A stretch of DNA of 64,000 nucleotides from Kordia sp. TARA_039_SRF (lineage in GTDB: Bacteria > Bacteroidota > Bacteroidia > Flavobacteriales > Flavobacteriaceae): assembly GCA_006383075.2 (NCBI GenBank), contig SMNH02000002.1:197127-261126 (forward strand). The letters are read 5' to 3'. The notes below the pieces were generated by a model. The model worked only from the letters and a program-made list of their open reading frames with translations, ran no database searches and was not told where the DNA came from. Shown here one piece after another: positions 10,535 to 51,769 of this stretch. The position numbers and the translations under genes are program-made. Position 1 is the stretch's first letter. Every line of letters starts with the position of its first letter.

Positions 10535-10557
10535 CTATTTTATGATTTTGAATTGAA

Positions 10558-11259: not shown

Positions 11260-11274
11260 CTCATATAGTTCTTA

Positions 11275-11484: not shown

Positions 11485-11605
11485 GATTTAATAATTTAAA
11501 GGTTGATAATTTTTGGTATTGAAGTGGTTTAGAAAGTAATTTGGCAAATTACCTCTTATAATCTACGCAAATCACTTTCTGAAATAGCTTTTTCTTTTGT
11601 TCAAT

Positions 11606-11806: not shown

Positions 11807-11964
11807 GATTACTGATTTAATGATTCGTAATTTTTGGTCATACAATGTACAGTTTACAGAATACTTTTACAATTTATACACTAAAGTTTATGAAAGTAGC
11901 GTAAAATTATCTGACAATTCTGCCGTTTTTAATTAAGGAAGGTGAGTTCGACATAAAAATCGAT

Positions 11965-12180
11965 AGTAGTTTCTTCTTTTCCGCAGTGTAGCAGGGATTT
12001 TTCGTTAAAAATTTCTGAAGCCTTGGAAGAAATTTAGAAAAATTCCTGCGGTTTTGTTTTTTCTCCTAAAAGAAAAAGCAAAAACACCTCTGGAAAAGCG
12101 CCCTTTCTTTTGTTGATGCCTGTGCTGAACTTGATTCAGTATTCTTTGGGCAAGCAAAGAACAAGAAAGTAAATAACTGA
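11965..12180 (+). repeat. Dispersed structured repeat, family A, copy 2
   Basis: This copy contains the conserved blocks CTTTTCCGCAGTGTAG, hairpin 1 (GCAGGGATTTTTC at 11991-12003 with GAAAAATTCCTGC at 12037-12049), hairpin 2 (about 12051-12085), ACACCTCTGGAAAA, and the C/T-rich hairpin 3. Hairpin 3 is interrupted by about 23 bases containing TGCTGAACTTGATTCAGTA (12123-12141), itself a small palindrome absent from the other copies. The copy lies in a gene-free stretch of about 490 bases between the peptide genes and the LAS peptidase candidate, antisense to both. Confidence 0.82.
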
Positions 12181-12299
12181 ATTTCAGTTTTTTTTAAAAT
12201 TACTTCATCGAGAAGAAACAACTTTACTTGAATAAAACTTATACAGAATTGACCTTAAAGAAATATTTTAAAATTACCGAAGCTATTAAAACAAAAAAA

Positions 12300-13118
12300 C
12301 TATAATTGCACATGAATATGATCGTCATGACGAACGGCGTGACAACCGTGAAAACGTATTTTTGAACTCGTCAGCTGCATGCGCTTTTGTAAATGTGGCT
12401 CAATAAATAGTTTTTTAATTTGGGAAGATGCTGTCAATTTTTCTATCAAACTTTTGGTCCGTTCGCTGTCAAACACATACGCTTCTTTGTGGCGTTGCGA
12501 GACTATTTTTTCTAAGAAACTGTATTGAAAATAACCGTTTTCAGCACAAAATTCAGGCATATTCTCCTCTCCTTTTCTAGGCGATTCGCAAACGCCGTAA
12601 CCCAACCACGACGGACTTCCATTTTTGTATTTCTTTGTTGTAGCATCTGTGTAATAAAACACCAAATCAACTTTACGTCCGTCGTTATGACTCCAATGTG
12701 GCAATAAAGGAAATTTCGCGCCAAGCGGAAAACAAGCATCTAAATAATACGTCACCGTTTCCGGGAATTCTTCTTGCATTGCTTCCGCTTCTTGCAGTAA
12801 AATGGCATACAATTCTTCATCGACATAATGTCTGTTGAGTAAATAAGTAAACGCTCGCAACGGTTGCAAAGCGGAATGTGAAATCGGCAAAGCTTTTCTA
12901 TGATATATACTAGAAGCCAATACAGGCAATACAACAAACGATAGCACACTGTAAATCGCCAAAAAGAATCCAATATTAACGACTTTTCGCTTCCAGCCCA
13001 ACAGCGGATTGTGACGTTTCAACCATAAAACGAACACATACACTACGCCACCAATTTGAGTAACTATCGTTAGAAAAACAACAATAATGATATGTATTAC
13101 AATATAAAAATATTTCAT
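12300..13118 (-). CDS. Membrane-anchored LAS-type (M15-like) zinc metallopeptidase candidate
   Basis: The 272-residue product has two N-terminal transmembrane segments (about residues 5-32 and 46-70) and a soluble C-terminal domain. That domain carries SHNDGRKVDL (His144, Gly147, Asp151) and RHDDHIHVQL at the extreme C-terminus (His267, His269). H-x6-D plus H-x-H is the zinc-ligand pattern of LAS peptidases such as VanY, DacY and MepA, which cut peptidoglycan peptides. I do not recognise the exact family and the rest of the domain is unfamiliar. It stands alone between a repeat and a divergent barrel gene. A cell-wall role is inference. Confidence 0.6.
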   Translation of the reverse strand: MKYFYIVIHIIIVVFLTIVTQIGGVVYVFVLWLKRHNPLLGWKRKVVNIGFFLAIYSVLSFVVLPVLASSIYHRKALPISHSALQPLRAFTYLLNRHYVDEELYAILLQEAEAMQEEFPETVTYYLDACFPLGAKFPLLPHWSHNDGRKVDLVFYYTDATTKKYKNGSPSWLGYGVCESPRKGEENMPEFCAENGYFQYSFLEKIVSQRHKEAYVFDSERTKSLIEKLTASSQIKKLFIEPHLQKRMQLTSSKIRFHGCHAVRHDDHIHVQL

Positions 13119-13368
13119 TTTTTAAATAGCTAAAAGTGTTGAAAACACAGTAAAATCAATCGATTCAAGCTTTTCTTTACACAGTATTCATTTTCTCATT
13201 TCTGCGTGATTGCAAAATAGTTTTCTATCATTCCACATAAAAATTCAACCTAAAAAATTCCACATTCACCTTTTTTTTATCCCAATTCGGCAGATTCTCC
13301 TTTTGTATAAATGGATTCTGAAACATATTTGTGCATCAAAAAAAACGAACAGATTAAAACGAACAGTT

Positions 13369-15738
13369 ATGTTAAAAACTTTACTACCTTTTATTTTATT
13401 GCTTGCAAACTACAGTTTATTTGCACAAAGTACAATTTCGGGAAAAGTAACCGACACATCCAAACAACCGATGTCATTTTCAAACGTAGTATTATACGAT
13501 AATACCACAGAAACTGCGTTACAAGCTGTGATTGTTGAAGAAAACGGAACCTACACATTTACCAATGTAAAAAACGGAACTTATGTTGTAGAAGCGTCTT
13601 TGTTTGGTTATAAAACAGAACGTTCTATCGTATTGAACATCAATACAACTAAAAAAGTGACCTTCGATTTTATATTACGAGAAGATATTCCTGAAAATTT
13701 AGATGAAGTCGTAATTGTAGCCAAAAAACCCATCATCACACAAAATGCTGAAAAATTAGTAGTGAATTTGGAAAAATCTGAAATGGTGAATTCCAATGTA
13801 CGCGATATTGTCAAAAAAATTCCTGGTGTTTTAGTTACGGGAAACAATTTGAGTTATGCGGGACAAAGCAATATCCGAATTCTTATTAACGGAAAACAAA
13901 CAAATTATATGGACATGCAAACGCTGTTGCGCGAAATGCCTGCCGATAATATTGCCAAAATTGAATTGATACAACAACCTGGCGCAGAATACGATGCAGA
14001 CGGTTCAGGCGCTTTGATTAATATTATTTTAAAGAAAAATGTAAAATTGGGCACCTACGGAAGCTTGAAAAGTATGGTGGGTTATGTAGATGATTTTACG
14101 TTTAGAAAAAGCGCTTCGATTGCAAGTTTTAAAGGGAAAATCAATTGGCAAGCTGGTGCGAGTTATTCGCGCGGTTCTTGGCGAGAAGATTTGCAAATTA
14201 TTCGCCGTGTGGGTGATGATGTGTACGATCAGTTTTCGCGTTCGCCGTTTGATCCGAATACGTTGCGATTGAATGCCGGATTGGATTATTACATCAATGA
14301 CAAACACACGACTGGAATTAGCGTGCAACGTACAGAAACTTCGTCAAATCGTGTGACGGATAACGTCACAAATATTACCAGCAACGGCACGTTAGACATG
14401 CTAGAAACCGACAACCGTTTTGAGCGCGATTGGAAATTGTATGTTATCAATCCGTATTACGAATACGATGATGATGTTAACAAAATAGCGTTGGATTTTA
14501 ATTATGTAGACTACAAATCGACCAACGAAAACAATCTGTTTCAAACGGGACAAAGTATGGTTGATTATGACAATCAACGCTATTTTCAGGATGCCGATTA
14601 CAATATTTACACCTATCAAGCAGATTACAAACGTACGTTGAATGATAACATTTCGCTTCACGCTGGATTGAAATATGCGAATGTAGATTCGGACAGCGAT
14701 TTGCAATCGTTGGTACAAACAGATTCGGGTGAATTTGTAAACAATCCGAACCAAACCAATCGTTTTTTGATTGACGAAGATATCATGGCGGCGTATGCAA
14801 AAGTGAACGTGAAGTTAGATAAATGGTCATTTTCGGGCGGATTGCGTTGGGAACAAAGTGAAACTGTCGGAACATCACAAAACTTAAATACTTCTTTAAA
14901 CAGAACGATTGCAAAATTTTTCCCAAGTTTGAGCATCACGCGAAATATTACAGACGAAATTGCTGCCAATGTAGCGTACAGTTATCGCATTCAGCGTCCG
15001 TCGTACGAAACGTTAAATCCGTTTGTATATTATTACGATCCGTTTACGTTTGAGCAAGGAAATCCGACGTTGCGTCCAGCATTGACGAATAGTTTTCGCT
15101 TCAACTTAACCTATGAAAATCAACCATTTTTCAGCGTAAGCTATAACAAAACTGACGACACCTTATTTCAATTGATTTCACAAAACGATGCTACTTCTGA
15201 AACATCGCGTTCGGTAATCAACTTGTCAAAAAATGAAAACTGGAGCTTTAGTTTGTTTGCGCCATTGAATTTTGTAAAAGGCTTGGACGGTTACACAGGC
15301 GTGATTGTGAATTACAACCGATTCATGTCGGAAGACTTAAATCCTGTTTTGGACAATAAAAAGTGGAACATGACTTGGTTTACAAGTGCTGAATACAAAT
15401 TGCCGTGGGGAATTCAGTCAGAAGTTTCAGGGTATTATACCTCTGGCGGATTTGAAGGACAAATAGAATTCGACTGGATTGCTGGATTGGACATCGCGTT
15501 TAGCAAAAAATTCATGAACGACCAATTGAAAGTCAGCGTGGAATTGGAAGAAATTTTAGACCGAAAATTTAACGGTACGATTAATTATGACAATGTAAAT
15601 GCGAATATCATCAGTGATTTTCCGCGTAGAAATGTATTTTTACAATTAAGTTATAGTTTTGGAAAGAAATACAACAAAAAGAAAAATAGAAAAAACAGCG
15701 CAGGTGACGAAGTTGATAGAATTAATACGAAGCAGTAG
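13369..15738 (+). CDS. Outer-membrane beta-barrel protein (OMP_b-brl_3, TonB-receptor-like)
   Basis: The product is about 789 residues. A signal peptide (MLKTLLPFILLLANYSLFAQ) leads into a carboxypeptidase-regulatory-like domain (STISGKVTDTSKQPMSF), a plug-like region (VRDIVKKIPGVLV, GQSNIRILINGKQ, IAKIELIQQPGAEYDADGSGAL) and a long barrel of the OMP_b-brl_3 type with RPSYETLNPF and GNPTLRP. ATG 13369 is preferred over a frame extension to 13210 because the signal peptide begins there. The C-terminus is Lys-rich rather than ending in an aromatic residue. The ligand is unknown. A LytS/LytTR pair follows, separated by a repeat. Confidence 0.88.
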   Translation: MLKTLLPFILLLANYSLFAQSTISGKVTDTSKQPMSFSNVVLYDNTTETALQAVIVEENGTYTFTNVKNGTYVVEASLFGYKTERSIVLNINTTKKVTFDFILREDIPENLDEVVIVAKKPIITQNAEKLVVNLEKSEMVNSNVRDIVKKIPGVLVTGNNLSYAGQSNIRILINGKQTNYMDMQTLLREMPADNIAKIELIQQPGAEYDADGSGALINIILKKNVKLGTYGSLKSMVGYVDDFTFRKSASIASFKGKINWQAGASYSRGSWREDLQIIRRVGDDVYDQFSRSPFDPNTLRLNAGLDYYINDKHTTGISVQRTETSSNRVTDNVTNITSNGTLDMLETDNRFERDWKLYVINPYYEYDDDVNKIALDFNYVDYKSTNENNLFQTGQSMVDYDNQRYFQDADYNIYTYQADYKRTLNDNISLHAGLKYANVDSDSDLQSLVQTDSGEFVNNPNQTNRFLIDEDIMAAYAKVNVKLDKWSFSGGLRWEQSETVGTSQNLNTSLNRTIAKFFPSLSITRNITDEIAANVAYSYRIQRPSYETLNPFVYYYDPFTFEQGNPTLRPALTNSFRFNLTYENQPFFSVSYNKTDDTLFQLISQNDATSETSRSVINLSKNENWSFSLFAPLNFVKGLDGYTGVIVNYNRFMSEDLNPVLDNKKWNMTWFTSAEYKLPWGIQSEVSGYYTSGGFEGQIEFDWIAGLDIAFSKKFMNDQLKVSVELEEILDRKFNGTINYDNVNANIISDFPRRNVFLQLSYSFGKKYNKKKNRKNSAGDEVDRINTKQ

Positions 15739-39671: not shown

Positions 39672-41534
39672 TTAATACGAAACACCTAACATGTCATCAA
39701 TAGTATTTACCGTAACCGCGTGGTAATTTGGACGTGCTTTTTCGTAAATACGCTTGGCTTCATCCAAACGATTGTTACGCTTGAGCGCTTTGTAAATGGT
39801 AGATACATACCAACGGCGACCAACATTTAGTAAGAAGTCTTCCATTCGCTGATCGACATTGTTTCCGTGATAATCATGATTAATCGCTTGTTCAAACCAA
39901 ACCATAGCGATGTATGAATTGCTCGCAGAAGAGAAATTGCAAGCTTGGTCTATTTTTTCAAACAATCCGTCGTACAATTTTTGCGGAATGTTTCGAATAA
40001 AGTGTATTTGCTGCTGAATGTTCCAATCTTGTTGACACACGACTTCAGCTTCGATGGTTTTATATTGCCAATCGGACAATACTTTGTCTACTTCTTTGAA
40101 TTTATCTGATTTGATTTTAACTGCATTTCCTGGAATTCCCGCTTTGTAAATCCAAGTATCTACATTAAAATCTACATTATTTTTAGCTAAAAGCTGCGTG
40201 TTTAGATATTCCACAAACTTTTCTGTGGTCATAGTGGAAAACGCGTGTTTTTTAAAATATTCTTTTAAAAAACCGTCCATTTCATCGCGTCCAACTGTTT
40301 CTTCTAAAGTTCGTAAAAATAAATACCCTTTATCATACGCAATGCTATTCATGCCATCATCAGGGTTTTTCCCTTGTAAATCTAGCTTCAAACGTGTTGC
40401 TTCAGGATGATTGCGTAAGTTTTTAATTTCATCCGATAAATCTTGTCGACTGATAGACGCAAGCATGTTTGCATATTCTTTTCCGTACAACGCTTCCATA
40501 ATGCGCATTTCAAAATACACCGTAAAACCTTCATTGAGCCAGAAATCGTTCCACGTAGCATTTGTCACTAAATTTCCTGACCATGAATGCGCCAATTCGT
40601 GTGCGATTAACGTCGTTAAGCTTCTATCGCCAGCAATGACGGTTGGCGTTGCAAAGGTCAATCGTGGATTTTCCATGCCACCAAACGGAAAACTTGGTGG
40701 CAACACCACTACATCAAACTGTTCCCATGCATAACGTCCGTATAAATTTTCGGCAGCTTCTACCATTTTTTCCATGTCGGCAAATTCATAATGCACTTTT
40801 TCAATCATAGATTTTTCTGCATATACGCCAGTTCTAGGACTTATTTCTTTATATATCAAATCGCCAACCGCTAACGCAATTAGATATGGCGAAATCGGTT
40901 GATTCATCTCAAAACTATACTGACCAGTTTCGTTTTTTTCTTTCGGATTTTCCGCACTCATAATTGCCATCAGTTCTTTTGGCACTTTAACTTTGGCTGA
41001 ATACGTTAAGCGCACTTGCGGACTGTCTTGAATTGGAATCCAAGTTCGCGTTAAAATAGCTTGTCCTTGCGTAAGTAAAAACGGGTGTTCTTTATCGGCG
41101 GTTTGCTGCGGATTTAAAAACTGTAGTGCTTCTGTTTTGTCGGTAGTTTCATAACTGATTGAAACTGTTTTGGCATCACTATCAATAGGTATCGTCAGCG
41201 ATTGTCCCAAAATAGGGTCGTTTTCACCTAGTTTAAAAGTGACTTCTTTTCCATCTACAAAAACTTGATGAATCTGTAAATATTTAGCATCAAATACAAT
41301 TTCGGAAGCCTTAAAACTTTCAATGGTATACGTGGCAGTTCCTGAGATGATTTCTTTTTCAAAATTAACATCAATATCTAACAACAAATGTTTCGCAACT
41401 GCTTCATTTGGTTTTGCATACGAATGCGTATCATTAGCGTAAGAGCTCATTTTTTTAGTTTCTTTTTCGGAAGTAGTACAGCTTATGAAGCAGGCAAGCA
41501 GCAACAAAAAAGCAGTTTTTTTGAGAATTTTCAT
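39672..41534 (-). CDS. M1 family aminopeptidase (leukotriene A4 hydrolase-like), lipoprotein
   Basis: The 620-residue product has a lipoprotein signal (lipobox FISC), an N-terminal beta domain, the GGMENPRLTFATPT exopeptidase motif and the zinc motif HELAHSW (His312, Glu313, His316) with Glu335 in WLNEGF. The C-terminal helical domain (YHGNNVDQRMEDF region) is that of the leukotriene A4 hydrolase group, common in Bacteroidota. It trims N-terminal residues from peptides in the envelope. ATG 41534 is chosen over 41576 because it places the lipobox correctly. It is monocistronic. Confidence 0.9.
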   Translation of the reverse strand: MKILKKTAFLLLLACFISCTTSEKETKKMSSYANDTHSYAKPNEAVAKHLLLDIDVNFEKEIISGTATYTIESFKASEIVFDAKYLQIHQVFVDGKEVTFKLGENDPILGQSLTIPIDSDAKTVSISYETTDKTEALQFLNPQQTADKEHPFLLTQGQAILTRTWIPIQDSPQVRLTYSAKVKVPKELMAIMSAENPKEKNETGQYSFEMNQPISPYLIALAVGDLIYKEISPRTGVYAEKSMIEKVHYEFADMEKMVEAAENLYGRYAWEQFDVVVLPPSFPFGGMENPRLTFATPTVIAGDRSLTTLIAHELAHSWSGNLVTNATWNDFWLNEGFTVYFEMRIMEALYGKEYANMLASISRQDLSDEIKNLRNHPEATRLKLDLQGKNPDDGMNSIAYDKGYLFLRTLEETVGRDEMDGFLKEYFKKHAFSTMTTEKFVEYLNTQLLAKNNVDFNVDTWIYKAGIPGNAVKIKSDKFKEVDKVLSDWQYKTIEAEVVCQQDWNIQQQIHFIRNIPQKLYDGLFEKIDQACNFSSASNSYIAMVWFEQAINHDYHGNNVDQRMEDFLLNVGRRWYVSTIYKALKRNNRLDEAKRIYEKARPNYHAVTVNTIDDMLGVSY

Positions 41535-41699
41535 GAATTTTTTGGTACTAAATAGTGTTTTAATCGATTTTTTCAAAGCTACGGATTTTATTCAGAAAAT
41601 ACACAAAACGAATTTAACCCAATGTTAAGTAAGGTGTTTCCGTACCAATATTTACTACATTTTTTATAATTTTTCATCATTAACCAAAAAATTACGATT

Positions 41700-41894
41700 A
41701 TGTTAAAAAACATTTCAAATTTAAAAGGAGCTAAAACATTGAATAAGCAATCGCAAAAAGTTATTGGTGGTAGACCGCGCCCAAGCAGAGGTCCGTGTGG
41801 AGAAACTGGCGGAATGCCTATCAGCTGGTCACAAGACCGTTGTTTTGGTTATGGAATTGTGTGGTATAATGGACAATGTTATGCCTGTTATTAA
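41700..41894 (+). CDS. GG-leader peptide precursor, GRPRPS type
   Basis: The 64-residue product has leader MLKNISNLKGAKTLNKQSQK ending in VIGG, a double-glycine site. The core is GRPRPSRGPCGETGG, then a Trp- and Cys-containing tail (ISWSQDRCFGYGIVWYNGQC and YACY) with four Cys. It differs from the three following precursors in leader and core, resembling a separate flavobacterial family of short bacteriocin-like peptides. It is the first of four precursors packed within 900 bases, 12 bases before the next. Confidence 0.7.
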   Translation: MLKNISNLKGAKTLNKQSQKVIGGRPRPSRGPCGETGGMPISWSQDRCFGYGIVWYNGQCYACY

Positions 41895-41906: not shown

Positions 41907-42095
41907 ATGAAAAAAAGACATCTTAAAACTTTACAACTCAATAAAGAGCGTATTTCAAACTTAAAGCTTACCACATTAAAAGGCGGAAGAAATACTGCGG
42001 ATATTGAAATTTGTGGAACTGATATAAATTCATGTTATTGGTTGGTTTGTCCTTTTTCGCAAGGAGCTACAGAATGCATTCCTGATGAACAATAA
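41907..42095 (+). CDS. Class I lanthipeptide-like precursor with CYWxxC core
   Basis: The 62-residue product has the leader MKKRHLKTLQLNKERISNLK then LTTLKGG, typical of the Bacteroidota class I lanthipeptide-like precursors (L-x-L-N-K-x-x-I-S-N-L). The core holds ICGTDINSCYWLVCPFSQGA and ends CIPDEQ. CYWLVC matches the C-[YF]-W-x(2,3)-C motif also in the next two genes. No LanB/LanC or exporter is in the window. The leader start is well supported by shared leader sequence. Confidence 0.75.
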   Translation: MKKRHLKTLQLNKERISNLKLTTLKGGRNTADIEICGTDINSCYWLVCPFSQGATECIPDEQ

Positions 42096-42121
42096 TAGAA
42101 TTCAATCTTAACTTACATAGC

Positions 42122-42382
42122 ATGAAAAAAAGAAAACTTAAAAATTTACAACTCAATAAAAAATCTATTTCAAACCTAGAAATGCATACTGCAAAAGGCG
42201 GTTATGAATCTAACAATGGCTCCTGTTTTTGGCAAGATTGTCCATCTTCTGAGCCAGAACCTTATGCGAGCGACTGTTATTGTCCTTACAATGGAAACGG
42301 TGGCGGAAATACGAATAACTGTCAAACACAAGTAAATTGTGGTTCTACAGGTTCTTGTTATTGGGAAGATTGTGAAGGATAG
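42122..42382 (+). CDS. Class I lanthipeptide-like precursor with duplicated CYWxxC core
   Basis: The 86-residue product has the leader MKKRKLKNLQLNKKSISNLE and a KGG site, then two core units: GSCFWQDCPSS and GSCYWEDCEG, separated by a Cys-, Asn- and Gly-rich spacer (SDCYCPYNGNGGGN). Two S-C-[FY]-W-x-D-C repeats in one precursor are striking and suggest either two products or a bicyclic one. It lies 26 bases after the previous precursor and 32 before the next. Confidence 0.75.
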   Translation: MKKRKLKNLQLNKKSISNLEMHTAKGGYESNNGSCFWQDCPSSEPEPYASDCYCPYNGNGGGNTNNCQTQVNCGSTGSCYWEDCEG

Positions 42383-42414
42383 ACTAATAATTATAATCAT
42401 AAAAATTAAAAATC

Positions 42415-42594
42415 ATGAAAAAAAGAGAACTTAAAAACTTAAAACTCAACAAAAAATCTATTTCTAACATGGAAACCAGTTCGCCAATCGGTGGACGTGA
42501 CTCCAATAATAGACAGTGTTATTCTGAGCAAAATATTACTGCTTGTTACTGGGAACCAGGTTGCGAAAGTATTCGTCCAAGACTTTGTTCTTAA
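42415..42594 (+). CDS. Short lanthipeptide-like precursor, 59 residues
   Basis: This frame is easily missed because it has only 59 codons. The leader MKKRELKNLKLNKKSISNME is nearly identical to the two upstream genes, followed by a GG site (IGG) and the core RDSNNRQCYSEQNITACYWE then PGCESIRPRLCS. ACYWEPGC fits C-[YF]-W-x(2,3)-C with one extra residue. It is the fourth of the tandem set and is followed 26 bases later by a strong terminator, so the four probably form one message. Confidence 0.8.
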   Translation: MKKRELKNLKLNKKSISNMETSSPIGGRDSNNRQCYSEQNITACYWEPGCESIRPRLCS

Positions 42595-42620: not shown

Positions 42621-42648
42621 AAAGCGAACCGAAGTTCGCTTTTTTTTA
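42621..42648 (+). terminator. Terminator of the precursor cluster
   Basis: AAAGCGAAC (42621-42629) pairs with GTTCGCTTT (42634-42642) around a CGAA loop, followed by a T run. The same stem recurs at 46819 and 47190 with a TTCG loop. Confidence 0.92.
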
Positions 42649-42778: not shown

Positions 42779-44836
42779 ATGCAGAAAAAAATTATTTTGT
42801 ATTTGTTTTTTGTAGTTTACATGTTAAGTAGCAGTTACATACATGCACAGAAAACATATTATGTAAAAACCGTTAACGAAGCCGCTGCTCCAGAGTTTGA
42901 AAAACAGGGAAATTACATGGAGTACATAGGAACAGACACGGATGAAGAAAATTTATTCTCAAAGTATACTATTGATGAATTTTATCAAGCCTATCCAACT
43001 TCAAATAGAGCTACATTGCGAAATGCTTTCATCATGGTAACCACTTCTACAGAAATTGTCGATGATATGTTGACTACCTTTCCAGGAATTTACACGTCTA
43101 TCACTGATATTACGAATGATTTACCAGAACTAAGTTACACACCTCATTATCCTGATGATTATATAACGAGTTCTGTTAGAATTCCCTTTGATACTACTAC
43201 TTACGATCGTAAAGATTTAGAGTATATAGATGCACCAAAAGCTTGGGGAATTACAGATACTATCAATAAAGTTATTACTATTGGAATTTCAGATGCTAAA
43301 GTAGATGATCAGATTTCGGAATTATCTGGAAAAGTTTCCTATATAAATCCTTATGCAGCATCGGAGCCTGTAAATTGTACTAATGGATACAGAACTCATG
43401 GTACTGGTGTAAGTGTAATTGCTGCTGCCAAAGGAGACAATAATGAAGGGACTACTGGTGTATGTTATGATTGTGATATTACAGCAACTTCACTAAATAA
43501 TTATGATTATTACAACTTATTATTACTGGCGCAAGATGGAGTAAAAGTTATCAACATAAGTTGGGGAAATCATAGTAATATGGCTCCCGCAGCTTATATA
43601 GCTTCTAATCCTAATCACGCAGATCAACAAGAATGTATCAATGAAATTGTGGAAGACTATGATGTCGTTGTGGTCGCTGCAGCAGGAAATGATACTTCTT
43701 TTGATAGTAATGGCGCAAATTTAGTTTATGATTACCCTGCTTCTTATGATAATGTGATATCTGTATCTGGTGTAAATCATTGGTATACTATCGATAATTA
43801 CCCAAATAATGAACCTATATTTAATGCACCTAATGGTGAAAACTATATGAGGTTTATAGAAAATTCTGTAGCTCGTTATGTGGATGTTGATTTAACCGAC
43901 CCCAACAACCCATCTAATCCAGTTGGTGTTTATTCACAATATTGGCTACCTAATAATACTTACATGCATACATTGAATGAAAAAGTTGACATAGTATCTC
44001 CTGGCTATCAAATACCTTCATATAAATATTTAGGTTACAACTGTACTATGGATACCGATACACTATATGGAGGGAAATATGTCTCAGGAACTTCACTAGC
44101 AGCACCAATCGTTACAGGAACTGTCGCTTTGATGTTTAAAGTAAACGAATGTTTACTTCCTGATGAAGTAGAAAGTATTCTAAAACTCACTACAAAAGAT
44201 ATAGAAGTACTACCTATGAATGCTTTTGCTGAAGGCTATATTGGTGCTGGAAAACTTGAAACAGGAAATGCTGTTGAGTTTGTTCACGAAATGCAGAAAA
44301 GTGACGGAAATGCCGTTATTAAAGACCATGTTTTTTATCGTTATGAGTTCGATTTAGAAAAATTTAATCACGATGTATCTATTGAAAATGTGACCTTTAA
44401 AGATGACGTAGTTGTGAATTTTGTAGCAAATAACAGTATCAGTTTAAAAGAAGGGACACATTTAGTTCCTAATGCCAACGGCTCTATTACGCTAAAAGCA
44501 GATAATACAATCAATGATGTTTGTGTACCAAGTAGTAGGCAAGCAAATGCAAGTAATATCCCTGAAATTACAAAAGAAACGATTGAAAATACTTCACTGA
44601 ATATTTTTCCAAATCCTTCATCAAATTTTATTTCTTTACAGCTTTCGAATAGTTCAGACCTTATTGTAAGTGTTGAAATATATACCATTCAAGGAAATCT
44701 ATTGTCTGTAATTAACAATGAGAAATCGAAGAAAACAATTTCAGTAGATATAAACAATTGGAGAAGTGGAATCTACATCTCTAAAGTAATTACGAAACGA
44801 AATGAAACTTTTACAGGGAAAATTGTAAAACAATAA
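42779..44836 (+). CDS. T9SS-secreted subtilisin-like serine peptidase (S8)
   Basis: The 685-residue product has a signal peptide (MQKKIILYLF to near HAQ), a propeptide-like N-terminal part, and an S8 peptidase domain with Asp172 (ITIGISDAKVDD), His207 (YRTHGTGVSV) and Ser439 (VSGTSLAAPIV); the first motif is degenerate. The C-terminus is a type A T9SS sorting domain (NIFPNPSSNFISL, then GNLLSVINNEKS). It is exported to the surface. It starts 185 bases after the precursor cluster terminator; processing of precursors outside the cell is only a possibility. Confidence 0.85.
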   Translation: MQKKIILYLFFVVYMLSSSYIHAQKTYYVKTVNEAAAPEFEKQGNYMEYIGTDTDEENLFSKYTIDEFYQAYPTSNRATLRNAFIMVTTSTEIVDDMLTTFPGIYTSITDITNDLPELSYTPHYPDDYITSSVRIPFDTTTYDRKDLEYIDAPKAWGITDTINKVITIGISDAKVDDQISELSGKVSYINPYAASEPVNCTNGYRTHGTGVSVIAAAKGDNNEGTTGVCYDCDITATSLNNYDYYNLLLLAQDGVKVINISWGNHSNMAPAAYIASNPNHADQQECINEIVEDYDVVVVAAAGNDTSFDSNGANLVYDYPASYDNVISVSGVNHWYTIDNYPNNEPIFNAPNGENYMRFIENSVARYVDVDLTDPNNPSNPVGVYSQYWLPNNTYMHTLNEKVDIVSPGYQIPSYKYLGYNCTMDTDTLYGGKYVSGTSLAAPIVTGTVALMFKVNECLLPDEVESILKLTTKDIEVLPMNAFAEGYIGAGKLETGNAVEFVHEMQKSDGNAVIKDHVFYRYEFDLEKFNHDVSIENVTFKDDVVVNFVANNSISLKEGTHLVPNANGSITLKADNTINDVCVPSSRQANASNIPEITKETIENTSLNIFPNPSSNFISLQLSNSSDLIVSVEIYTIQGNLLSVINNEKSKKTISVDINNWRSGIYISKVITKRNETFTGKIVKQ

Positions 44837-44896
44837 TTAAATTAATGATTTAATTTGCATAACGATACTGTCGCTATAATTCTTTAAAAATTAAAC

Positions 44897-45877
44897 ATGA
44901 TAAGATTCAAAAAAGTTGCAAAACTAATTGTTATTAATCTATTGGTTTTTATTTTAATCCTTTTGGTTTTGGAGGGACTTACAAGATTGTTTAGCAATAC
45001 GATTCGTACTCAAGGTACTGACGATGTATTACTACAAAAATCTATCTATCATACATCATTAGGCTTAAAAAAATCGTATACAGGATATGCATTTGATAGA
45101 GAAGTTAACACTGACGTATACCATTTTAGAAAAAATGGTACCACTTTTAATGATTCTTTACAAACAACTCTCTTACTTGGTGACTCTGTCACTATGGGCG
45201 TAGGAGTAAATGATTTGGAAACTTTCAGTGCACTAATCCAAGAAAAAACTCCAAATATAAATATCGCAAATCCTTCCGTAATTGGTTTTGATACTTACGA
45301 CTACGTAAATGTATATGAATCGTTAGCACAGAATGATAAACTCAATATTAAAAAAGTAATCGTTTTTTTCTGCTTAAATGATATCTATGTGAGAGAGAAT
45401 AATGATACCGCACCTATGTTGAGCGGGAAACCTTTCATTGGAAAAATATTTGATTTTTTAAAGACAAATAGTTATTTCTATATATGGTTAAAAGGAACTT
45501 TTTTTGACAGATCTAAAGTCTTTTTTGAAAATGACTATTCGCTTTATAAAGATAAAAATGTTGAAAAAGTAGCTAAAAATCTTAAAAAAATAGCTGAAAG
45601 TTGTAATGCAAACCAAATCGAATTTAATGTGGTTTTACTACCGTATGAATATCAATTAAGAAATCATGAAAATGATACAATTTATCACCCACAAAAAGCC
45701 CTTTCCGAAAAGTTAATACAATTAGGAATCAATGTATTCGATTGTAAAAACTATGTAAAAAATAACATAAATAATAATGTCCAAGAAGCTTTTCTATTTG
45801 CTGACGGAATTCATTTTTCCGAAAAAGGACACCAAATAATAGCGGATTACACGCTACATAAAATTATCAAACCTTAA
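44897..45877 (+). CDS. Membrane-anchored SGNH/GDSL hydrolase
   Basis: The 326-residue product has one N-terminal membrane helix (LIVINLLVFILILLVLEGL) and an SGNH hydrolase domain: LLLGDSVTMGVG with the nucleophilic Ser, FFCLNDIY with the Asn block, and DGIHFSEKGHQI with the catalytic Asp/His. Members are lipases, esterases or O-acetyl transferases/esterases of polysaccharides. It lies 60 bases after the S8 gene and 11 before the coiled-coil protein. Confidence 0.82.
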   Translation: MIRFKKVAKLIVINLLVFILILLVLEGLTRLFSNTIRTQGTDDVLLQKSIYHTSLGLKKSYTGYAFDREVNTDVYHFRKNGTTFNDSLQTTLLLGDSVTMGVGVNDLETFSALIQEKTPNINIANPSVIGFDTYDYVNVYESLAQNDKLNIKKVIVFFCLNDIYVRENNDTAPMLSGKPFIGKIFDFLKTNSYFYIWLKGTFFDRSKVFFENDYSLYKDKNVEKVAKNLKKIAESCNANQIEFNVVLLPYEYQLRNHENDTIYHPQKALSEKLIQLGINVFDCKNYVKNNINNNVQEAFLFADGIHFSEKGHQIIADYTLHKIIKP

Positions 45878-45888
45878 TAAAACAAAAC

Positions 45889-46794
45889 ATGAAAAAAAAT
45901 ATAACCACCATATTACTATTTTCATTCTATAGTATATTATCACAAACCAACACATTTCCTAGTACAGGAAATGCAGGCGTAGGAACAACTACTCCAACTG
46001 AAGAACTAGAAGTAGTAGGAACAATTCAGTCTGAAAAAGCTGTTTTTACAAATAATACAAATCCCGGATTTACGCTACAACTAGGAAGTGAATTTCAACC
46101 AGGAAGAAGAAACTTTGACTTCTATGTTAATAACACTCCTCCAACCAATGCAAGTGCGCAATTACAATTTCTCATGACAGATGAAAATGCTGAATGGAGA
46201 TATGGATTATCTTTTAGTGAAACATATTCTAATATGGCATTTAACGACCATAACGGTTCTGAAATATTTAAAGTTAATCAAGGGGATTTAGGTTTGAATA
46301 AAGTATATGTTCACATGCCTAAAGCTGATTCTCGAATTGTAATCGGAGGATATGGAACTTATGAACAAACACATAAATTTGTAGTAAAAGATGGTAGTGC
46401 GTTGATAGAAGGTAATATTTTTACAGATAGCAATATCGGGATTGGAACTACGGATGTTGGCGGAACTGAAAATTGGAAACTTGCCGTAAACGGAAAAGTT
46501 CGCGCCAAAGAAGTAAAAGTTGAAACGGGTTGGTCTGACTTTGTGTTTGAAAGTGATTACGCCCTTCCTTCATTAGAGGAAGTGGAGCAACACATCAATG
46601 AAAAAGGTCACTTAAAAGACATTCCGTCTGCCAAAGAAGTCGCAGAAAATGGGATTCTTCTAGGGGAAATGGATTCTAAATTACTCCAAAAAATTGAAGA
46701 ACTAACCTTGTATATGATTGAAATGAACAAAGAAATCAAAACACTAAAAGAAGAAAATAAAATTCTCAAACAAAAACTAGACGCTAAAAACTAA
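45889..46794 (+). CDS. Secreted protein with C-terminal coiled coil (tail-fibre-like)
   Basis: The 301-residue product has a short signal-like start (MKKNITTILLFSFYSILSQ), a region GNAGVGTTTPTEELEVVGTI typical of flavobacterial surface proteins sharing a head with phage-tail-fibre-like proteins, and a C-terminal segment (NWKLAVNGKVRAKEVKVETG, then LEEVEQHINEKGHLKDIPS) followed by a coiled coil (LQKIEELTLYMIEMNKEIKT). No T9SS domain is visible. It may oligomerise at the surface. A terminator follows 24 bases after the stop. Confidence 0.72.
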   Translation: MKKNITTILLFSFYSILSQTNTFPSTGNAGVGTTTPTEELEVVGTIQSEKAVFTNNTNPGFTLQLGSEFQPGRRNFDFYVNNTPPTNASAQLQFLMTDENAEWRYGLSFSETYSNMAFNDHNGSEIFKVNQGDLGLNKVYVHMPKADSRIVIGGYGTYEQTHKFVVKDGSALIEGNIFTDSNIGIGTTDVGGTENWKLAVNGKVRAKEVKVETGWSDFVFESDYALPSLEEVEQHINEKGHLKDIPSAKEVAENGILLGEMDSKLLQKIEELTLYMIEMNKEIKTLKEENKILKQKLDAKN

Positions 46795-46949: not shown

Positions 46950-47168
46950 ATGAAAAAAAGAACGATTAAAAACCTTTCATTAGGTAAGAACACCATTTCT
47001 ACATTGGAAAACAACTTAGTTGGTGGCGCGCCAACAACAAACCAATCACAGTATTGTCCGCAAGATCCACTTCCATGGTCTTTTGCATGTCCGCATTCAC
47101 TGGATGAAATAGTGTGTTCAACACGATCAGCTAATTCTCAATGCTATTCTAGATGTCAAGGGTGTTAG
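46950..47168 (+). CDS. GG-leader peptide precursor, Cys-rich core
   Basis: The 72-residue product has the leader MKKRTIKNLSLGKNTISTLE and the cleavage site LVGG, resembling the lanthipeptide-like leaders at 41907-42594. The core APTTNQSQYCPQDPLPWSFA is followed by CPHSLDEIVC and QCYSRCQGC; there are six Cys and no CYWxxC motif. ATG 46950 is preferred over 46920 because the leader begins there. It has its own promoter region and a terminator 22 bases after the stop. Confidence 0.75.
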   Translation: MKKRTIKNLSLGKNTISTLENNLVGGAPTTNQSQYCPQDPLPWSFACPHSLDEIVCSTRSANSQCYSRCQGC

Positions 47169-47304: not shown

Positions 47305-49836
47305 ATGAGAAAATTAGTACTGTTTATTCTAGTAAATTGCCTGTTTCTATCTACGATTTCAGCACAAAAACCAGATAAACTTTCCTCCAACCAAATCTAC
47401 GAGAAACTACAAAAACTCAATTTTTTAGGTTCTGCTTTATATGTAGCCGCACATCCTGATGATGAAAATACACGACTCATCTCCTATTTGTCCAATGAAG
47501 TGAAAGCGCGAACAGCGTATTTATCGTTGACGCGTGGTGATGGTGGACAAAATTTAATCGGACCTGAAATTCGTGAACAATTAGGCGTCATTCGTACACA
47601 AGAACTTCTTGCGGCACGTCGCGTAGATGGCGGAGAACAACTATTTACACGCGCCAATGATTTTGGCTATTCCAAACATCCGGATGAAACGTTGGACATT
47701 TGGAACAAAGATGAAGTATTGAGCGATGTGGTTTGGGCAATTCGAAAGTTTAAACCCGATGTTATCATCAACCGTTTTGACCATAGAACGCCTGGAAGAA
47801 CACACGGACACCACACTACGTCTGCCATGTTGAGCATGGAAGCGTTCGATTTGGCTGGCGACAATACAAAATACACGTCACAACTAAAAACATACGATGC
47901 TTGGCAACCAAAACGCTTATTTTTTAACACTTCTTGGTGGTTTTACGGAAGCCGCGAAAAATTTGAACAAGCTGATAAAAGTAAAATGCTCAATTTTGAT
48001 ATTGGTGTGTATTATCCGTTAAAAGGTTTGTCGAATAACGAATTGGCTTCTATGGCGAGCAGTCAGCATTTATGTCAAGGATTTGGACGATTGACCACGC
48101 GCGGAACACAAGAAGAATACATCGAATTTTTAAAAGGTGACTTTCCAGAAGATAAAAGCAATATTTTTTCAGGAATTGATACGTCTTGGAATCGTGTCAA
48201 AGGCGGAAAAGCGATTGGAAATATTTTATATGCGATTGAAAACAATTTCAACTTTGTAAATCCTGCGGCACATTTACCGCAATTGATGAAAGCCTATAAA
48301 CTGATTCAACAACTAGAAGATGCGCATTGGAAAACCATCAAATTAGGAGAAATTGAAGCTATCATTCAAGCGTGTGCGGGATTATATTTAGAAGCATCTG
48401 CAGCAGCGCCAAGTGCCACGCCGAGAAGCTCTTCAAATATTGCCATAGAAGCGTTGAACCGAAGCAATGCAAACATCAAATTAATATCAACAACGTCTAC
48501 GATTGACAACAAAACAGACAAAAAAGACCTTGCATTGCAACCAAATTCTAGAGAAAACTTTACGTTAAATATCAACATTGCAACAGACGACTATTCTGCG
48601 CCATATTGGTTATTTGAAAAAGGTACATTGGGCATGTACAAAGTTCCAAACCAACAGTTGCGTGGATTGCCAGAAACACCGCGACCAGCAACAATAAAAT
48701 TCAACCTAGAAATTGAAGGAACACCAATTACAATAACAAAACCTGTAGTATATCGCTATTCAAAACCTGACAAAGGTGAGCTGTACCAACCGTTTGAAAT
48801 ATTACCAGAAGTCACCGCAGATTTTGCCGATAAAGTCATCATTTTTTCTGACGATGCTACCAAAGAAATTCCTGTGACTGTGAAGGCAGGAAAAGACAAT
48901 ATTGACGGTTATGTTTCTATCAAACATCCGTACAGCTGGAAAGTCTATCCTGAAAAGCAAAAACTTACCATTGATCAAAAAGGAGACGAAGTTACGCTAA
49001 TGTTTACGGTAGTGCCGCCGTCTACGCAAAGTGAAGGTGTGTTGACTCCAGAAGTGTTTATTGGTGATGAAAAATATACAAAAGCTTTAAGCGAAATTGA
49101 ATACGACCATATTCCAAAACAATCAGTATTGTTACCTTCGGAAACCAAAGTCGTTCGTTTGAATATTCAGAAAAGCGGGCAATATATTGGCTACATTCAA
49201 GGTGCTGGTGACGCCATTCCTGAGAGTTTGCGTCAAATTGGCTACGACGTAGAAATCATTGATCCGTCAACAATCAATGCAGAGTTGCTTCAAAAGTACG
49301 ATGCGGTAGTTGTGGGAATTCGTGCGTACAATACGGTTGACGAATTAAAATTCAAGCAAAAATACATTCTAGACTATGTAAAAAATGGTGGAAACGTAAT
49401 TGTGCAATACAACACGAATCGCCGTCTTAAAGTAAATCCGAGCGAATTAGCGCCGTACAACTTACAACTATCGCGCGACCGTGTCACAGACGAAAATGCT
49501 ACCGTAGAAATCATCGCGAAAGAACATTCCTTAGTAAACTTTCCAAACAAAATAGAAGCCAAAGATTTTGAAGGTTGGGTACAAGAACGCGGATTATATT
49601 TTCCAAACTCTTGGGGAAGCGAATTTACGCCGATTCTTTCCATGAACGATACAGGCGAAACTGCCAAAAAAGGAAGTCTACTCATCGCCAAATACGGCAA
49701 AGGAAACTATATCTACACAGGATTAAGTTTTTTCCGTGAATTGCCTGCGGGCGTTCCTGGTGCGTACAAATTATTTACCAACATGATTTCGGTAGGCAAA
49801 GCACAAATCGTAAAGCAATCATCATTAAAAAACTAA
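47305..49836 (+). CDS. PIG-L family deacetylase, multidomain secreted
   Basis: The 843-residue product has a signal peptide (MRKLVLFILVNCLFLSTISA), then a PIG-L/LmbE zinc deacetylase domain (AAHPDDENTRLISYLSNEVK with metal ligands, HTTSAM with a further His), and long beta-rich C-terminal regions that look like carbohydrate- or envelope-binding domains. A final Rossmann-like domain (VGIRAYNTVDELKFKQKYIL) is found in similar flavobacterial proteins. ATG 47305 is preferred because an upstream TTG (47275) precedes non-signal sequence. A small peptide and a symporter follow 3 and about 120 bases downstream. Confidence 0.82.
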   Translation: MRKLVLFILVNCLFLSTISAQKPDKLSSNQIYEKLQKLNFLGSALYVAAHPDDENTRLISYLSNEVKARTAYLSLTRGDGGQNLIGPEIREQLGVIRTQELLAARRVDGGEQLFTRANDFGYSKHPDETLDIWNKDEVLSDVVWAIRKFKPDVIINRFDHRTPGRTHGHHTTSAMLSMEAFDLAGDNTKYTSQLKTYDAWQPKRLFFNTSWWFYGSREKFEQADKSKMLNFDIGVYYPLKGLSNNELASMASSQHLCQGFGRLTTRGTQEEYIEFLKGDFPEDKSNIFSGIDTSWNRVKGGKAIGNILYAIENNFNFVNPAAHLPQLMKAYKLIQQLEDAHWKTIKLGEIEAIIQACAGLYLEASAAAPSATPRSSSNIAIEALNRSNANIKLISTTSTIDNKTDKKDLALQPNSRENFTLNINIATDDYSAPYWLFEKGTLGMYKVPNQQLRGLPETPRPATIKFNLEIEGTPITITKPVVYRYSKPDKGELYQPFEILPEVTADFADKVIIFSDDATKEIPVTVKAGKDNIDGYVSIKHPYSWKVYPEKQKLTIDQKGDEVTLMFTVVPPSTQSEGVLTPEVFIGDEKYTKALSEIEYDHIPKQSVLLPSETKVVRLNIQKSGQYIGYIQGAGDAIPESLRQIGYDVEIIDPSTINAELLQKYDAVVVGIRAYNTVDELKFKQKYILDYVKNGGNVIVQYNTNRRLKVNPSELAPYNLQLSRDRVTDENATVEIIAKEHSLVNFPNKIEAKDFEGWVQERGLYFPNSWGSEFTPILSMNDTGETAKKGSLLIAKYGKGNYIYTGLSFFRELPAGVPGAYKLFTNMISVGKAQIVKQSSLKN

Positions 49837-49839
49837 CGT

Positions 49840-49947
49840 ATGAGTGACGCAAAAAAATTCGTTTGGAAAAAAATGTACACGGTCATTTTAGTGGCAAATT
49901 TGGCGTACATACTTTTATTTTACTTCATCATGAACATGTTCTCTTAA
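49840..49947 (+). CDS. 35-residue single-helix membrane protein
   Basis: This short frame starts 3 bases after the PIG-L stop and ends 10 bases before the symporter start. The product MSDAKKFVWKKMYTVILVAN continues LAYILLFYFIMNMFS, giving a charged N-terminus and one hydrophobic helix. Its tight placement inside the PIG-L/symporter operon, its plausible start and its Lys/Trp-then-helix layout support a real gene, probably an accessory subunit of the symporter. It has too few residues for any confident family call. Confidence 0.6.
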   Translation: MSDAKKFVWKKMYTVILVANLAYILLFYFIMNMFS

Positions 49948-49957
49948 TTCGTATCGC

Positions 49958-51769
49958 ATGCAAGCATTAGACTGGATTGTTTTAATTGGAACACTTACCG
50001 CCATTGTAGGGTACGGAACTTGGAAAACACGCGGAAGCAAAAGCTCAGAAGATTATATTCGAGGCGGAAGCTCCACAAAATGGTGGACGATTGGCTTGTC
50101 GGTAATGGCAACACAAGCAAGTGCCATCACCTTTTTATCAACAACGGGACAAGCATTTAGTGACGGAATGGGATTTGTGCAATTTTACTTCGGATTGCCT
50201 ATCGCAATGGTCATTATTTGTATGGTGTTTATTCCATTATATCACAAACTAAAAGTTTATACAGCATACGAATTTTTGGAAAATCGTTTTGACTTAAAAA
50301 CTAGAACTTTAACGGCGATTTTATTTCTCATTCAACGCGGATTGGCAGCAGGAATCACCATTTTTGCGCCTGCGATTATTTTGTCTATTGTATTGGGATG
50401 GAACTTAATCACGCTCAATATTATTATTGGAATTTTAGTAATTATCTATACCGTTTCTGGCGGAACCAAAGCAGTAAGCGTAACGCAAAAACAACAAATG
50501 TTTGTCATTTTTGCGGGAATGTTTGCGGCGTTTTTTATCACCTTAAATTTAATTCCAGAAGATGTCGGTTTTGTGCAAGCATTAGATATTGCTGGCGCGA
50601 GCGGAAAAATGGAAGTCTTGGATTTTTCGTTCGATTTGGACAACAGATACACCATTTGGACGGGAATTATTGGTGGAACATTTTTAATGCTCTCCTACTT
50701 CGGAACCGATCAAAGTCAAGTACAACGCTATCTTTCTGGGAAATCTGTTAAGGAAATGCGTTGGGGAATGATGTTCAACGGATTGCTCAAAGTTCCGATG
50801 CAGTTTTTCATTTTATTAGTTGGTGTGATGGTTTTTGTATTTTATCAATTCAATCCTGCACCACTCAACTTTATTGATGCTTCTACCGAAAAAGTATTAG
50901 CTTCTGAATATAGCGATGAATACAAAGCCTTGCAAAAGAAGCAAGTATCACTATTCGAAAAGAAAAAAGCAGTAAGTTTGCAATTGGCTAACTCGTACAA
51001 TACAGCCGACAAACAACAATTATTACGCTTAGACAGTATTGAAAAATCCTATCGCGCCGAATCAAAATATCTAATCAAACGTGCTATTGATGCAGAATAT
51101 GCTTCGGAATACGACGAATTGAAAAATGAAGTAGCTTCTTTAGAAAAAAATCCTGAAAGTGACACTTACAAAGAAAAGCAAGCAGAGCTCAAAACTTTGT
51201 ACGAATACGCAGCAAAAGACAGCGAAACCAATGACCGCGATTATATGTTTATCTCGTTCATTTTAAAATACTTACCAACGGGTTTGATTGGATTATTACT
51301 AGCGGTTATTCTGTCCGCAGCTATGTCGTCTACAGCTTCTGAAATTAACGCGTTGGCTACGATTACGTCTATCGATTTGTACAAACGAAATCGAAAAGGT
51401 GTGCCTTCTGTAGATCCGAATGCGGATGATGAACATTATGTAAAAGCCACCAAATGGTTTACACTCGGTTGGGGAATTTTAGCCATTATTATTGCGTGTT
51501 TTGCAAGTTTGGCAGAGAACTTAATTCAGTTAGTAAACATTATTGGTTCTATATTTTATGGCAATGTGTTGGGAATCTTCTTATTAGCATTCTTCTTTAA
51601 AAAAGTAAAAGGAAATGCTGTATTTACAGGCGCATTAATAACGCAAGTCATTGTTATCGCTATTTGGTATATGGAAATTATGCCGTTTTTATGGTTGAAT
51701 TTGGTAGGTTGTGTCGTTGTAATTATACTGGCAACTGTTTTACAAATGACCACTAAAAAAGTCTCTTAG
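49958..51769 (+). CDS. Sodium:solute symporter family protein
   Basis: The 603-residue product has about 13 to 14 transmembrane segments in the SSS/LeuT arrangement. Signatures include WWTIGLSVMATQASAITFLS, GTDQSQVQRYLSGKS and LSAAMSSTASEINALATITS. Between helices there is a hydrophilic insertion of about 110 residues (about residues 305-420, with KKQVSLFEKKKAVSLQ and DELKNEVASLEKNPES) that is rich in Glu, Lys and Tyr and predicted helical. The substrate is not evident; pairing with a PIG-L deacetylase suggests a sugar-derived compound, but this is inference. Confidence 0.88.
   Translation: MQALDWIVLIGTLTAIVGYGTWKTRGSKSSEDYIRGGSSTKWWTIGLSVMATQASAITFLSTTGQAFSDGMGFVQFYFGLPIAMVIICMVFIPLYHKLKVYTAYEFLENRFDLKTRTLTAILFLIQRGLAAGITIFAPAIILSIVLGWNLITLNIIIGILVIIYTVSGGTKAVSVTQKQQMFVIFAGMFAAFFITLNLIPEDVGFVQALDIAGASGKMEVLDFSFDLDNRYTIWTGIIGGTFLMLSYFGTDQSQVQRYLSGKSVKEMRWGMMFNGLLKVPMQFFILLVGVMVFVFYQFNPAPLNFIDASTEKVLASEYSDEYKALQKKQVSLFEKKKAVSLQLANSYNTADKQQLLRLDSIEKSYRAESKYLIKRAIDAEYASEYDELKNEVASLEKNPESDTYKEKQAELKTLYEYAAKDSETNDRDYMFISFILKYLPTGLIGLLLAVILSAAMSSTASEINALATITSIDLYKRNRKGVPSVDPNADDEHYVKATKWFTLGWGILAIIIACFASLAENLIQLVNIIGSIFYGNVLGIFLLAFFFKKVKGNAVFTGALITQVIVIAIWYMEIMPFLWLNLVGCVVVIILATVLQMTTKKVS

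What the first reader, a model, noticed from the sequence alone, without database searches (positions are those of the whole stretch)
41907..42594. Lanthipeptide-like precursors sharing a C-[YF]-W-x(2,3)-C core
Three tandem precursors have nearly identical leaders (LKxLxLNKxxIS) and cores with SCYWLVC, SCFWQDC plus SCYWEDC, and ACYWEPGC. The motif survives while the rest of the core changes, which points to a structural or chemical need, such as a Cys-Cys or Cys-Trp link. One precursor carries it twice. No modification genes are near, so maturation would act in trans. I do not know a described class with this motif.
Basis: partly seen in the sequence, partly recalled or inferred. Interest (0 to 1): 0.68.

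Follow-up and report, generated by a model that had tools for sequence, protein, structure and literature searches.

The report
Lanthipeptide precursors matured from afar
Three neighbouring genes of a marine Kordia bacterium encode small peptides that are probably bridged into sulphur rings by one enzyme set encoded elsewhere in the genome, a set that seems to serve about 140 such peptides.

Summary
Three tandem ORFs carry similar GG leaders and four C-[YF]-W-x(2,3)-C motifs. The genome is a Kordia. The array lies at the same place in 11 of 11 Kordia genomes held; over 22 orthologous peptides (32 motif copies) both Cys are kept in 32, Trp in 31, Tyr/Phe in 27, and a Ser/Thr stands 1-2 residues before the first Cys in 32.

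The trio belongs to something larger: at least 139 peptides with this leader, in 71 clusters on 17 contigs. Each Kordia genome has exactly one LanB (split in two genes), beside a LanC, HlyD and a C39 exporter. In the window's genome 602 of 647 core Cys can be paired one-to-one with a Ser/Thr 3-7 residues upstream (shuffles 420±10); downstream pairing is at chance. A second Kordia with one LanB and one LanC repeats this (174 of 189; shuffles 121±5); pieces of ordinary proteins do not.

Best reading: class I lanthipeptide precursors matured in trans, the motif marking two interlocked thioether rings rather than a disulfide or Cys-Trp link. Leader type and Kordia's RiPP richness are in print; I found no account of one class I synthetase serving so many dispersed precursors, nor of this core. 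No chemistry is shown.

The parts
41907..42095 (+). Precursor A, 62 aa; leader to GG (residues 1-27), core with SCYWLVC at 42030-42050. Proposed rings T30-C36, T38-C43, S42-C48, S51-C57.
   Evidence: orthologues in 4 of 11 Kordia genomes; 4 of 4 Cys have a Ser/Thr 3-7 upstream.
42122..42382 (+). Precursor B, 86 aa; motif twice, SCFWQDC at 42221-42241 and SCYWEDC at 42353-42373. 8 Cys and 8 of 10 core Ser/Thr columns invariant as classes.
   Evidence: orthologues in 10 of 11 Kordia genomes; 7 of 8 Cys paired within 3-7, 8 of 8 within 3-10.
42415..42594 (+). Precursor C, 59 aa; TACYWEPGC at 42538-42564. Proposed rings S30-C35, S37-C44, T42-C50, S52-C58.
   Evidence: orthologues in 8 of 11 Kordia genomes; 3 of 4 Cys paired within 3-7, 4 of 4 within 3-10.
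46950..47168 (+). Fourth leader peptide (72 aa) without the motif; in G005, G006, G010 and G004 a peptide of this kind lies in the array itself, and in G000 and G002 an insertion (subtilase and others) separates it from the trio.
   Evidence: NF038153 16.2 bits, cut-off 22.
42621..42642 (+). Terminator-like hairpin with T tail after precursor C.
   Evidence: Consensus scan only: 2 found, 0.7±0.9 in shuffles.
39672..41576 (-). Conserved left neighbour of the array (M1 aminopeptidase-like by recalled motifs, not searched); marks synteny, not thought to belong to the system.
47305..51769 (+). Conserved right neighbours of the array: PIG-L domain protein (47305-49836) and sodium:solute symporter (49958-51769); mark synteny only.

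Best explanation
A, B and C are precursors of class I lanthipeptides. Their leader is bound by the genome's single split dehydratase LanB_N/LanB_C, encoded on another contig (G000:C1:275299-278455). Core Ser/Thr are dehydrated by glutamylation and elimination, the adjacent LanC (278462-279679) adds each Cys to a dehydro residue on its N-terminal side, and the C39 exporter with HlyD (266281-269845) cuts after GG and exports the product. The same enzymes serve at least some 139 dispersed precursors. The motif, better written [ST]-x(0,1)-C-[YF]-W-x(2,3)-C, marks two interlocked rings: the Ser/Thr that opens ring 2 stands just before the Cys that closes ring 1, with the aromatic pair inside ring 2. 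Shown by sequence: genes, leader, conservation, Ser/Thr-to-Cys spacing. Inferred: the chemistry, the action in trans, the export route, the ring topology, any function.
For: One LanB_N and one LanB_C in each of 11 of 11 Kordia genomes, in a syntenic locus with LanC, precursors with a similar leader, HlyD and C39-ABC. LanB_N aligns to NisB (E 8e-24) with R-x3-R-x-T-P-F-G kept; LanC keeps WCYG and CHG. The 11 Kordia genomes have 45-88 NF038153 hits each at E<=0.1 (lower bounds, candidates capped), the other 49 relatives 0-5. 602 of 647 core Cys pair one-to-one with an upstream Ser/Thr at 3-7, shuffles 420±10; downstream 360, shuffles 355±10; one core per stretch 291 of 307 against 200±6. G004, with one LanB and one LanC: 174 of 189 against 121±5 upstream, 92 against 97±5 downstream. 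Ordinary protein pieces: 218 of 583 against 246±11. S/T 1-2 residues before the first Cys in 32 of 32 motif copies.
Against: No product, mass or expression data. The three precursors score below the NF038153 cut-off (18.3, 13.5, 9.9; cut-off 22). The 3-7 window was chosen after seeing the offset profile (G004 is the independent test). Two of the trio's 16 Cys need spacings of 8 and 10. Ser/Thr are also in excess at +2 after Cys (z 6.0), which the ring reading does not directly explain. The second motif copy of B keeps Tyr/Phe in only 5 of 10 and loses Trp once; one type A orthologue lacks the last Cys. G020 and G036 have a LanB and no such leader; G015, G043, G045 and G056 have one weak leader hit and no LanB. 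The window's genome also has a LanM, a class V-like set and a stand-alone LanC. Orthologues are not independent of one another.
Confidence: 0.8

Rival explanations
1. Secreted disulfide-bonded Cys-rich peptides that only share a GG leader; the motif holds a C-x4-C or C-x5-C disulfide.
For: Cys-rich cores, GG leaders and C39 exporters fit; A, B and C of the window have 4, 8 and 4 Cys.
Against: No even preference in 139 cores (72 even, 65 odd, 2 none) or in G004 (27 even, 21 odd); orthologues of A, B and C also occur with 3, 5 and 9 Cys. A disulfide role does not ask for one Ser/Thr upstream of each Cys.
Confidence: 0.08
2. Other LanC-type systems of the genome (LanM, class V-like set, stand-alone LanC) mature the trio, not the LanB/LanC pair.
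For: 5 LanC-like hits in the window's genome; L048 has a LanC with a leader-like peptide (E 0.71) and no LanB in that 10 kb stretch.
Against: G004 has one LanC-like hit only, the one beside LanB, yet has 49 leader peptides in the 22 stretches read, among them a type B CYW precursor. The small ORF beside the LanM has a different leader.
Confidence: 0.08
3. A radical SAM or other oxidase makes a Cys-Trp or other side-chain link in the motif, alone or on top of lanthionine rings.
For: Trp kept in 31 of 32 copies; weak TIGR04149 match of A (15.8 bits, cut-off 25).
Against: Four SPASM hits in the genome, none at a leader place; no conserved modification gene beside the array in 11 genomes. Only SPASM-type genes were searched, so an added link is not excluded.
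Confidence: 0.04

Closest known systems
Bacteroidetes class I lanthipeptide precursors with LxLxKx5L leader (PMC7268733); NCBIfam NF038153 lant_leader_L1a
   Same: Leader motif (A and B strictly, C with Met in the last place; 90 of 139 strict, 137 relaxed), GG end, C39 exporter and LanB/LanC in the genome.
   Different: Precursors lie far from LanB/LanC; A, B and C score under the NF038153 cut-off; that study looked within seven genes of LanC, so it could not see dispersed ones.
Prochlorosins and synechococsins (ProcM, SyncM)
   Same: One tolerant synthetase, many precursors scattered over the genome (PMC10783134, passages).
   Different: Those are class II LanM with Nif11 leaders, 29 and 79 precursors; here a class I LanB/LanC pair, another leader, at least 139 candidates, and the trio's cores are under purifying selection across the genus.
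Interlocked rings D/E of nisin (recalled)
   Same: The residue opening one ring stands before the Cys that closes the previous ring.
   Different: Larger proposed rings with a conserved aromatic pair; topology here is only predicted.
Kordia RiPP precursors of PMC11118758
   Same: That work names Kordia RiPP-rich, up to 176 precursors in one Bacteroidota genome, and supposes ProcM-like enzymes for orphan precursors in general.
   Different: The passages and the section I saw do not tie the set to a single LanB, do not give the pairing evidence, and do not describe the CYW peptides; its supplements were not seen.

Membership tests
Class I lanthipeptide | LanB dehydratase with glutamylation and elimination domains in the genome | tested here: met
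   One PF04738 and one PF14028 protein, full-length matches; NisB-like alignment.
Class I lanthipeptide | LanC cyclase with zinc ligands | tested here: met
   PF05147 E 1e-45; WCYG and CHG kept against 8byk; ligand role recalled.
Class I lanthipeptide | Leader of FxLD or LxLxKx5L type | tested here: met
   A and B strictly, C with Met last.
Class I lanthipeptide | Core Ser/Thr placed N-terminal to Cys at ring spacing | tested here: met
   602 of 647 and 174 of 189; trio 14 of 16 at 3-7.
Class I lanthipeptide | Precursor clustered with LanB/LanC (usual, not required) | tested here: not met
   Trio on C2, LanB/LanC on C1.
Class I lanthipeptide | (Methyl)lanthionine in the product | not testable with these tools
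   Needs mass spectrometry.
NCBIfam NF038153 lant_leader_L1a | Score of 22 bits or more | tested here: not met
   18.3, 13.5 and 9.9 bits; 26 other places of the genome pass.
TIGR04149 rSAM-modified RiPP | Score of 25 bits or more and a nearby SPASM radical SAM | tested here: not met
   15.8 bits for A only; SPASM genes elsewhere.
Prochlorosin | Class II LanM of the ProcM group with Nif11 leader | tested here: not met
   No Pfam or NCBIfam Nif11 match of the trio; G004 has no LanM-sized LanC-like hit.
Disulfide peptide | Even Cys number | tested here: not met
   72 even, 65 odd, 2 none of 139.

The most novel reading that the evidence does not exclude
Kordia runs a class I counterpart of the prochlorosin system: one LanB/LanC pair, kept in the whole genus, matures well over a hundred dispersed precursors per genome, more than the 79 reported for SyncM. 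Some products, such as the CYW peptides with two interlocked rings, are held by purifying selection across the genus and so have set jobs rather than being a drifting library.
Probability: 0.7. Interest if true: 0.75.

Novelty: new variant of a known kind. Interest (0 to 1): 0.6.

Why it matters
If true, substrate tolerance on the scale of ProcM is not special to class II enzymes or picocyanobacteria, and a glutamyl-tRNA-dependent dehydratase with over a hundred natural substrates is at hand for study and engineering. The upstream pairing test gives a ring prediction that mass spectrometry can check for each of the 139 cores, and G004, with one LanB and one LanC, is a clean place to test action in trans.

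Tried and rejected
The subtilase gene just downstream (42779-44836) was considered as a processing protease; of the 11 arrays read it lies beside the array only in the window's genome and G002, so it is not a conserved partner. Disulfide and radical SAM readings were tested and fell behind. The motif as a family-wide theme: 3 of 139 peptides only. Relatives of B outside the genus: of 397 genomes of the family, 5 outside Kordia have a match at E<=1e-4, best E 7.8e-7 to 7.2e-5, with at most 13 candidates scored per genome; the five loci fetched (L165-L169) hold 9 leader peptides, none with the motif; the other matches of those genomes were not read. The scan of named genomes with B gave 7 loci, all Kordia. 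pS is high (0.53-0.71, uncorrected), so pN/pS values are rough.

Counts and drops: one search gave 147 hits (146 distinct peptides) at E<=1; I kept the 139 with E<0.02. In G004 49 peptides, 1 dropped for lack of a cleavage site. The 139 come from 0.95 Mb of the 4.59 Mb genome, stretches picked around NF038153 hits and C39 genes, so the true number may be higher; weak members may be false. For G004 I fetched 20 stretches and added L144 and L148; of the G004 places listed one (near 2870234) was left out.

Literature: 8 searches of the open PMC library; subscription papers and supplements were not seen, so 'not found' means not found there. Seen: PMC11118758 (passages and section 7); passages only of PMC7268733, PMC3091789, PMC10734526, PMC7477175, PMC9576775, PMC9993889, PMC12328550 and PMC10783134. 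Recalled, from no call: make-up of class V sets, nisin ring layout, residue roles in NisB and NisC, the M1 label of the left neighbour, NHLP naming.

Full report
What is there. The three ORFs lie at the stated coordinates, 26 and 32 bases apart, and a terminator-like hairpin follows at 42621-42642. They share a leader of the form MKKR-LK-L-LNK--ISN...GG. The four motif copies are SCYWLVC, SCFWQDC, SCYWEDC and TACYWEPGC. In 139 leader-bearing peptides of the same genome the motif is found only here; 0.10 copies would be expected from shuffled cores.

Where it is. The window is C2:197127-261126 of a 4.59 Mb draft genome. The 7 named relatives of precursor B are all Kordia (K. periserrulae, K. 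jejudonensis, K. zhangzhouensis, K. algicida, K. aestuariivivens and two uncultured Kordia), so this is a Kordia.

Conservation. A search with the three precursors found an orthologous array in each of 11 of 11 Kordia genomes (best hit per genome E 7e-36 to 4e-22; places outside the arrays 7e-12 and weaker). The array lies between the same neighbours, the 39672-41576 gene on one side and the PIG-L protein and symporter on the other, in all 11; in G001 seven further ORFs (about 8.6 kb) separate it from the left neighbour, of which only the end is in the stretch. Type A is present in 4 of 11, B in 10 of 11, C in 8 of 11. Over these 22 peptides and 32 motif copies the first and second Cys are kept in 32, Trp in 31, Tyr/Phe in 27; a Ser or Thr stands one or two residues before the first Cys in 32; over the whole family Ser/Thr is found at -1 in 0.20 and at -2 in 0.18 of Cys. 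The weak spot is the second copy of B, where the aromatic residue is kept in 5 of 10 and Trp is lost once. The cores as wholes are constrained too: pN/pS is 0.21-0.30 in cores and 0.29-0.30 in leaders, pS being high.

The larger family. NF038153, NCBI's class I lanthipeptide leader model, has 117 places at E<=10 in the genome, 26 over its cut-off. A leader HMM built from 91 peptides and run on 0.95 Mb of fetched stretches gives 139 peptides at E<0.02, in 71 clusters on 17 contigs, 6 of them in the 35 kb around LanB. Among 60 relatives the 11 Kordia genomes have 45-88 NF038153 hits each at E<=0.1 (lower bounds, as candidates were capped), the other 49 genomes 0-5. A few related leader peptides exist in other genera of the family, none of the 9 read with the motif.

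The enzymes. Each of the 11 Kordia genomes has exactly one LanB N-terminal and one LanB C-terminal domain protein. They form a syntenic locus in 11 of 11: LanC, LanB_N, LanB_C, one or two TPR regulators, one or more leader peptides, HlyD and a C39-ABC exporter (Pfam on the window's genome). Other LanB-bearing relatives have few leader hits: G028 1 LanB and 1 leader, G038 1 and 1, G040 2 and 2, G053 2 and 5, G020 and G036 one LanB and none; G015, G043, G045 and G056 have one weak leader hit and no LanB. LanB_N aligns to NisB with the R-x3-R-x-T-P-F-G block kept; LanC keeps WCYG and CHG.

The ring test. If a class I pair acts on the cores, each Cys needs its own Ser/Thr on the N-terminal side. 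With Cys fixed and other residues shuffled within each core, 420±10 of 647 Cys can be paired one-to-one with a Ser/Thr 3-7 residues upstream; the real number is 602. Downstream it is 360 against 355±10. With one core per stretch (57 cores) it is 291 of 307 against 200±6 upstream and 180 against 170±6 downstream, so tandem copies do not drive it. The upstream rate exceeds the downstream rate in 45 stretches, the reverse in 9. The excess peaks at -5 (z 6.7) and -6 (z 3.4); an unexplained excess lies at +2 (z 6.0). I chose the 3-7 window after seeing that profile, so G004 is the independent test: 48 cores give 174 of 189 against 121±5 upstream and 92 against 97±5 downstream. As a control, 261 pieces of ordinary proteins give 218 of 583 against 246±11 upstream and 250 against 240±10 downstream. 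Peptides were picked by leader, not core. Cys counts show no even preference, against disulfides as the rule.

What the motif is. In A, T38 lies 5 before C43 and S42 6 before C48. In B, S30 lies 5 before C35 and S34 6 before C40, S75 4 before C79 and S78 6 before C84. In C, S37 lies 7 before C44 and T42 8 before C50. So the motif is best read as [ST]-x(0,1)-C-[YF]-W-x(2,3)-C, the residue that opens the second ring standing in front of the Cys that closes the first: two interlocked thioether rings with an aromatic pair in the second. In B the 8 Cys columns and 8 of 10 core Ser/Thr columns are invariant as classes across 10 genomes, against 8 of 21 columns of other residues, which fits up to eight rings. 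The topology is inference; two of the trio's 16 Cys need spacings of 8 and 10.

Action in trans. No conserved maturation gene is beside the array in the 11 genomes. In G004, a complete genome on one contig, the LanC beside LanB is the only LanC-like hit, yet a type B CYW precursor and 48 other leader peptides were found in 22 stretches, so this pair is the only lanthionine route that I know of there. In the window's genome a LanM, a class V-like set and a stand-alone LanC also exist and could act on some peptides.

What is known. The LxLxKx5L...GG leader of Bacteroidetes class I precursors and the C39 proteases are in print (PMC7268733, passages). One LanBC cluster of K. algicida was listed in 2010 (PMC3091789, passages). 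Kordia is named RiPP-rich, with up to 176 precursors in one Bacteroidota genome (PMC11118758, section 7), and ProcM-like enzymes are supposed there for orphan precursors in general. Prochlorosins and synechococsins, the type case of one enzyme for many precursors, are class II with 29 and 79 precursors (PMC10783134, passages). In 8 searches I found no description of one class I pair serving Kordia's set, of the pairing evidence, or of the CYW peptides.

Verdict. The trio are new members of a known kind; one class I synthetase with many dispersed precursors is a new variant. Product structure and function are unknown; purifying selection across the genus says only that they matter to the cell.

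Noticed in passing
L172 (G000:C3:470000-489900), 9663-14124 (-): LanC-like, HopA1 and APH-like genes in a row (class V-like by recalled make-up) beside a 290-aa Cys-rich ORF with GPTGTxGC repeats; a LanC-like frame of 426-427 aa occurs in 10 of 11 Kordia genomes.
   Followed up: partly
L173 (G000:C5:119000-138900), 7500-10641 (+): A class II LanM (DUF4135 plus LanC domain) just after a 64-aa peptide with another GG leader.
   Followed up: partly
L048 (G000:C1:440000-450000), 4590-6911 (+): Stand-alone LanC beside a transglutaminase-like gene and a leader-like peptide (5352-5594), no LanB in that stretch.
   Followed up: partly
L050 (G000:C1:565000-584900), 12739-15639: A 534-aa protein with a weak LanC-like match and a DUF6734 protein flank a leader peptide (14449-14718).
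   Followed up: no
L038 (G000:C2:307500-327400): Two ORFs that look like nitrile-hydratase-type leader precursors (recalled naming) around two ABC exporters and a HlyD-like gene, one exporter with a C39 domain.
   Followed up: no
window 41700-41894 (+): A 64-aa peptide with a different GG leader and 4 Cys ends 12 bases before precursor A; no Pfam or NCBIfam match.
   Followed up: no
window 42779-46794 (+): Subtilase with T9SS sorting tail and two further genes inserted between trio and fourth leader peptide; the subtilase and the 45889-46794 gene are at this place in G000 and G002 only.
   Followed up: partly
G001:C4:115165-115326 and L140 9956-10102: A leader hit with two in-frame stops and a short leader-like remnant in the arrays of two relatives, which suggests gain and loss of members.
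   Followed up: no
L078 (G000:C21:1-18500), 14150-14718 (-): Two leader peptides whose cores are mostly repeats of a C-P-x(2,3)-[LI/A]-x-type unit with many Cys.
   Followed up: no
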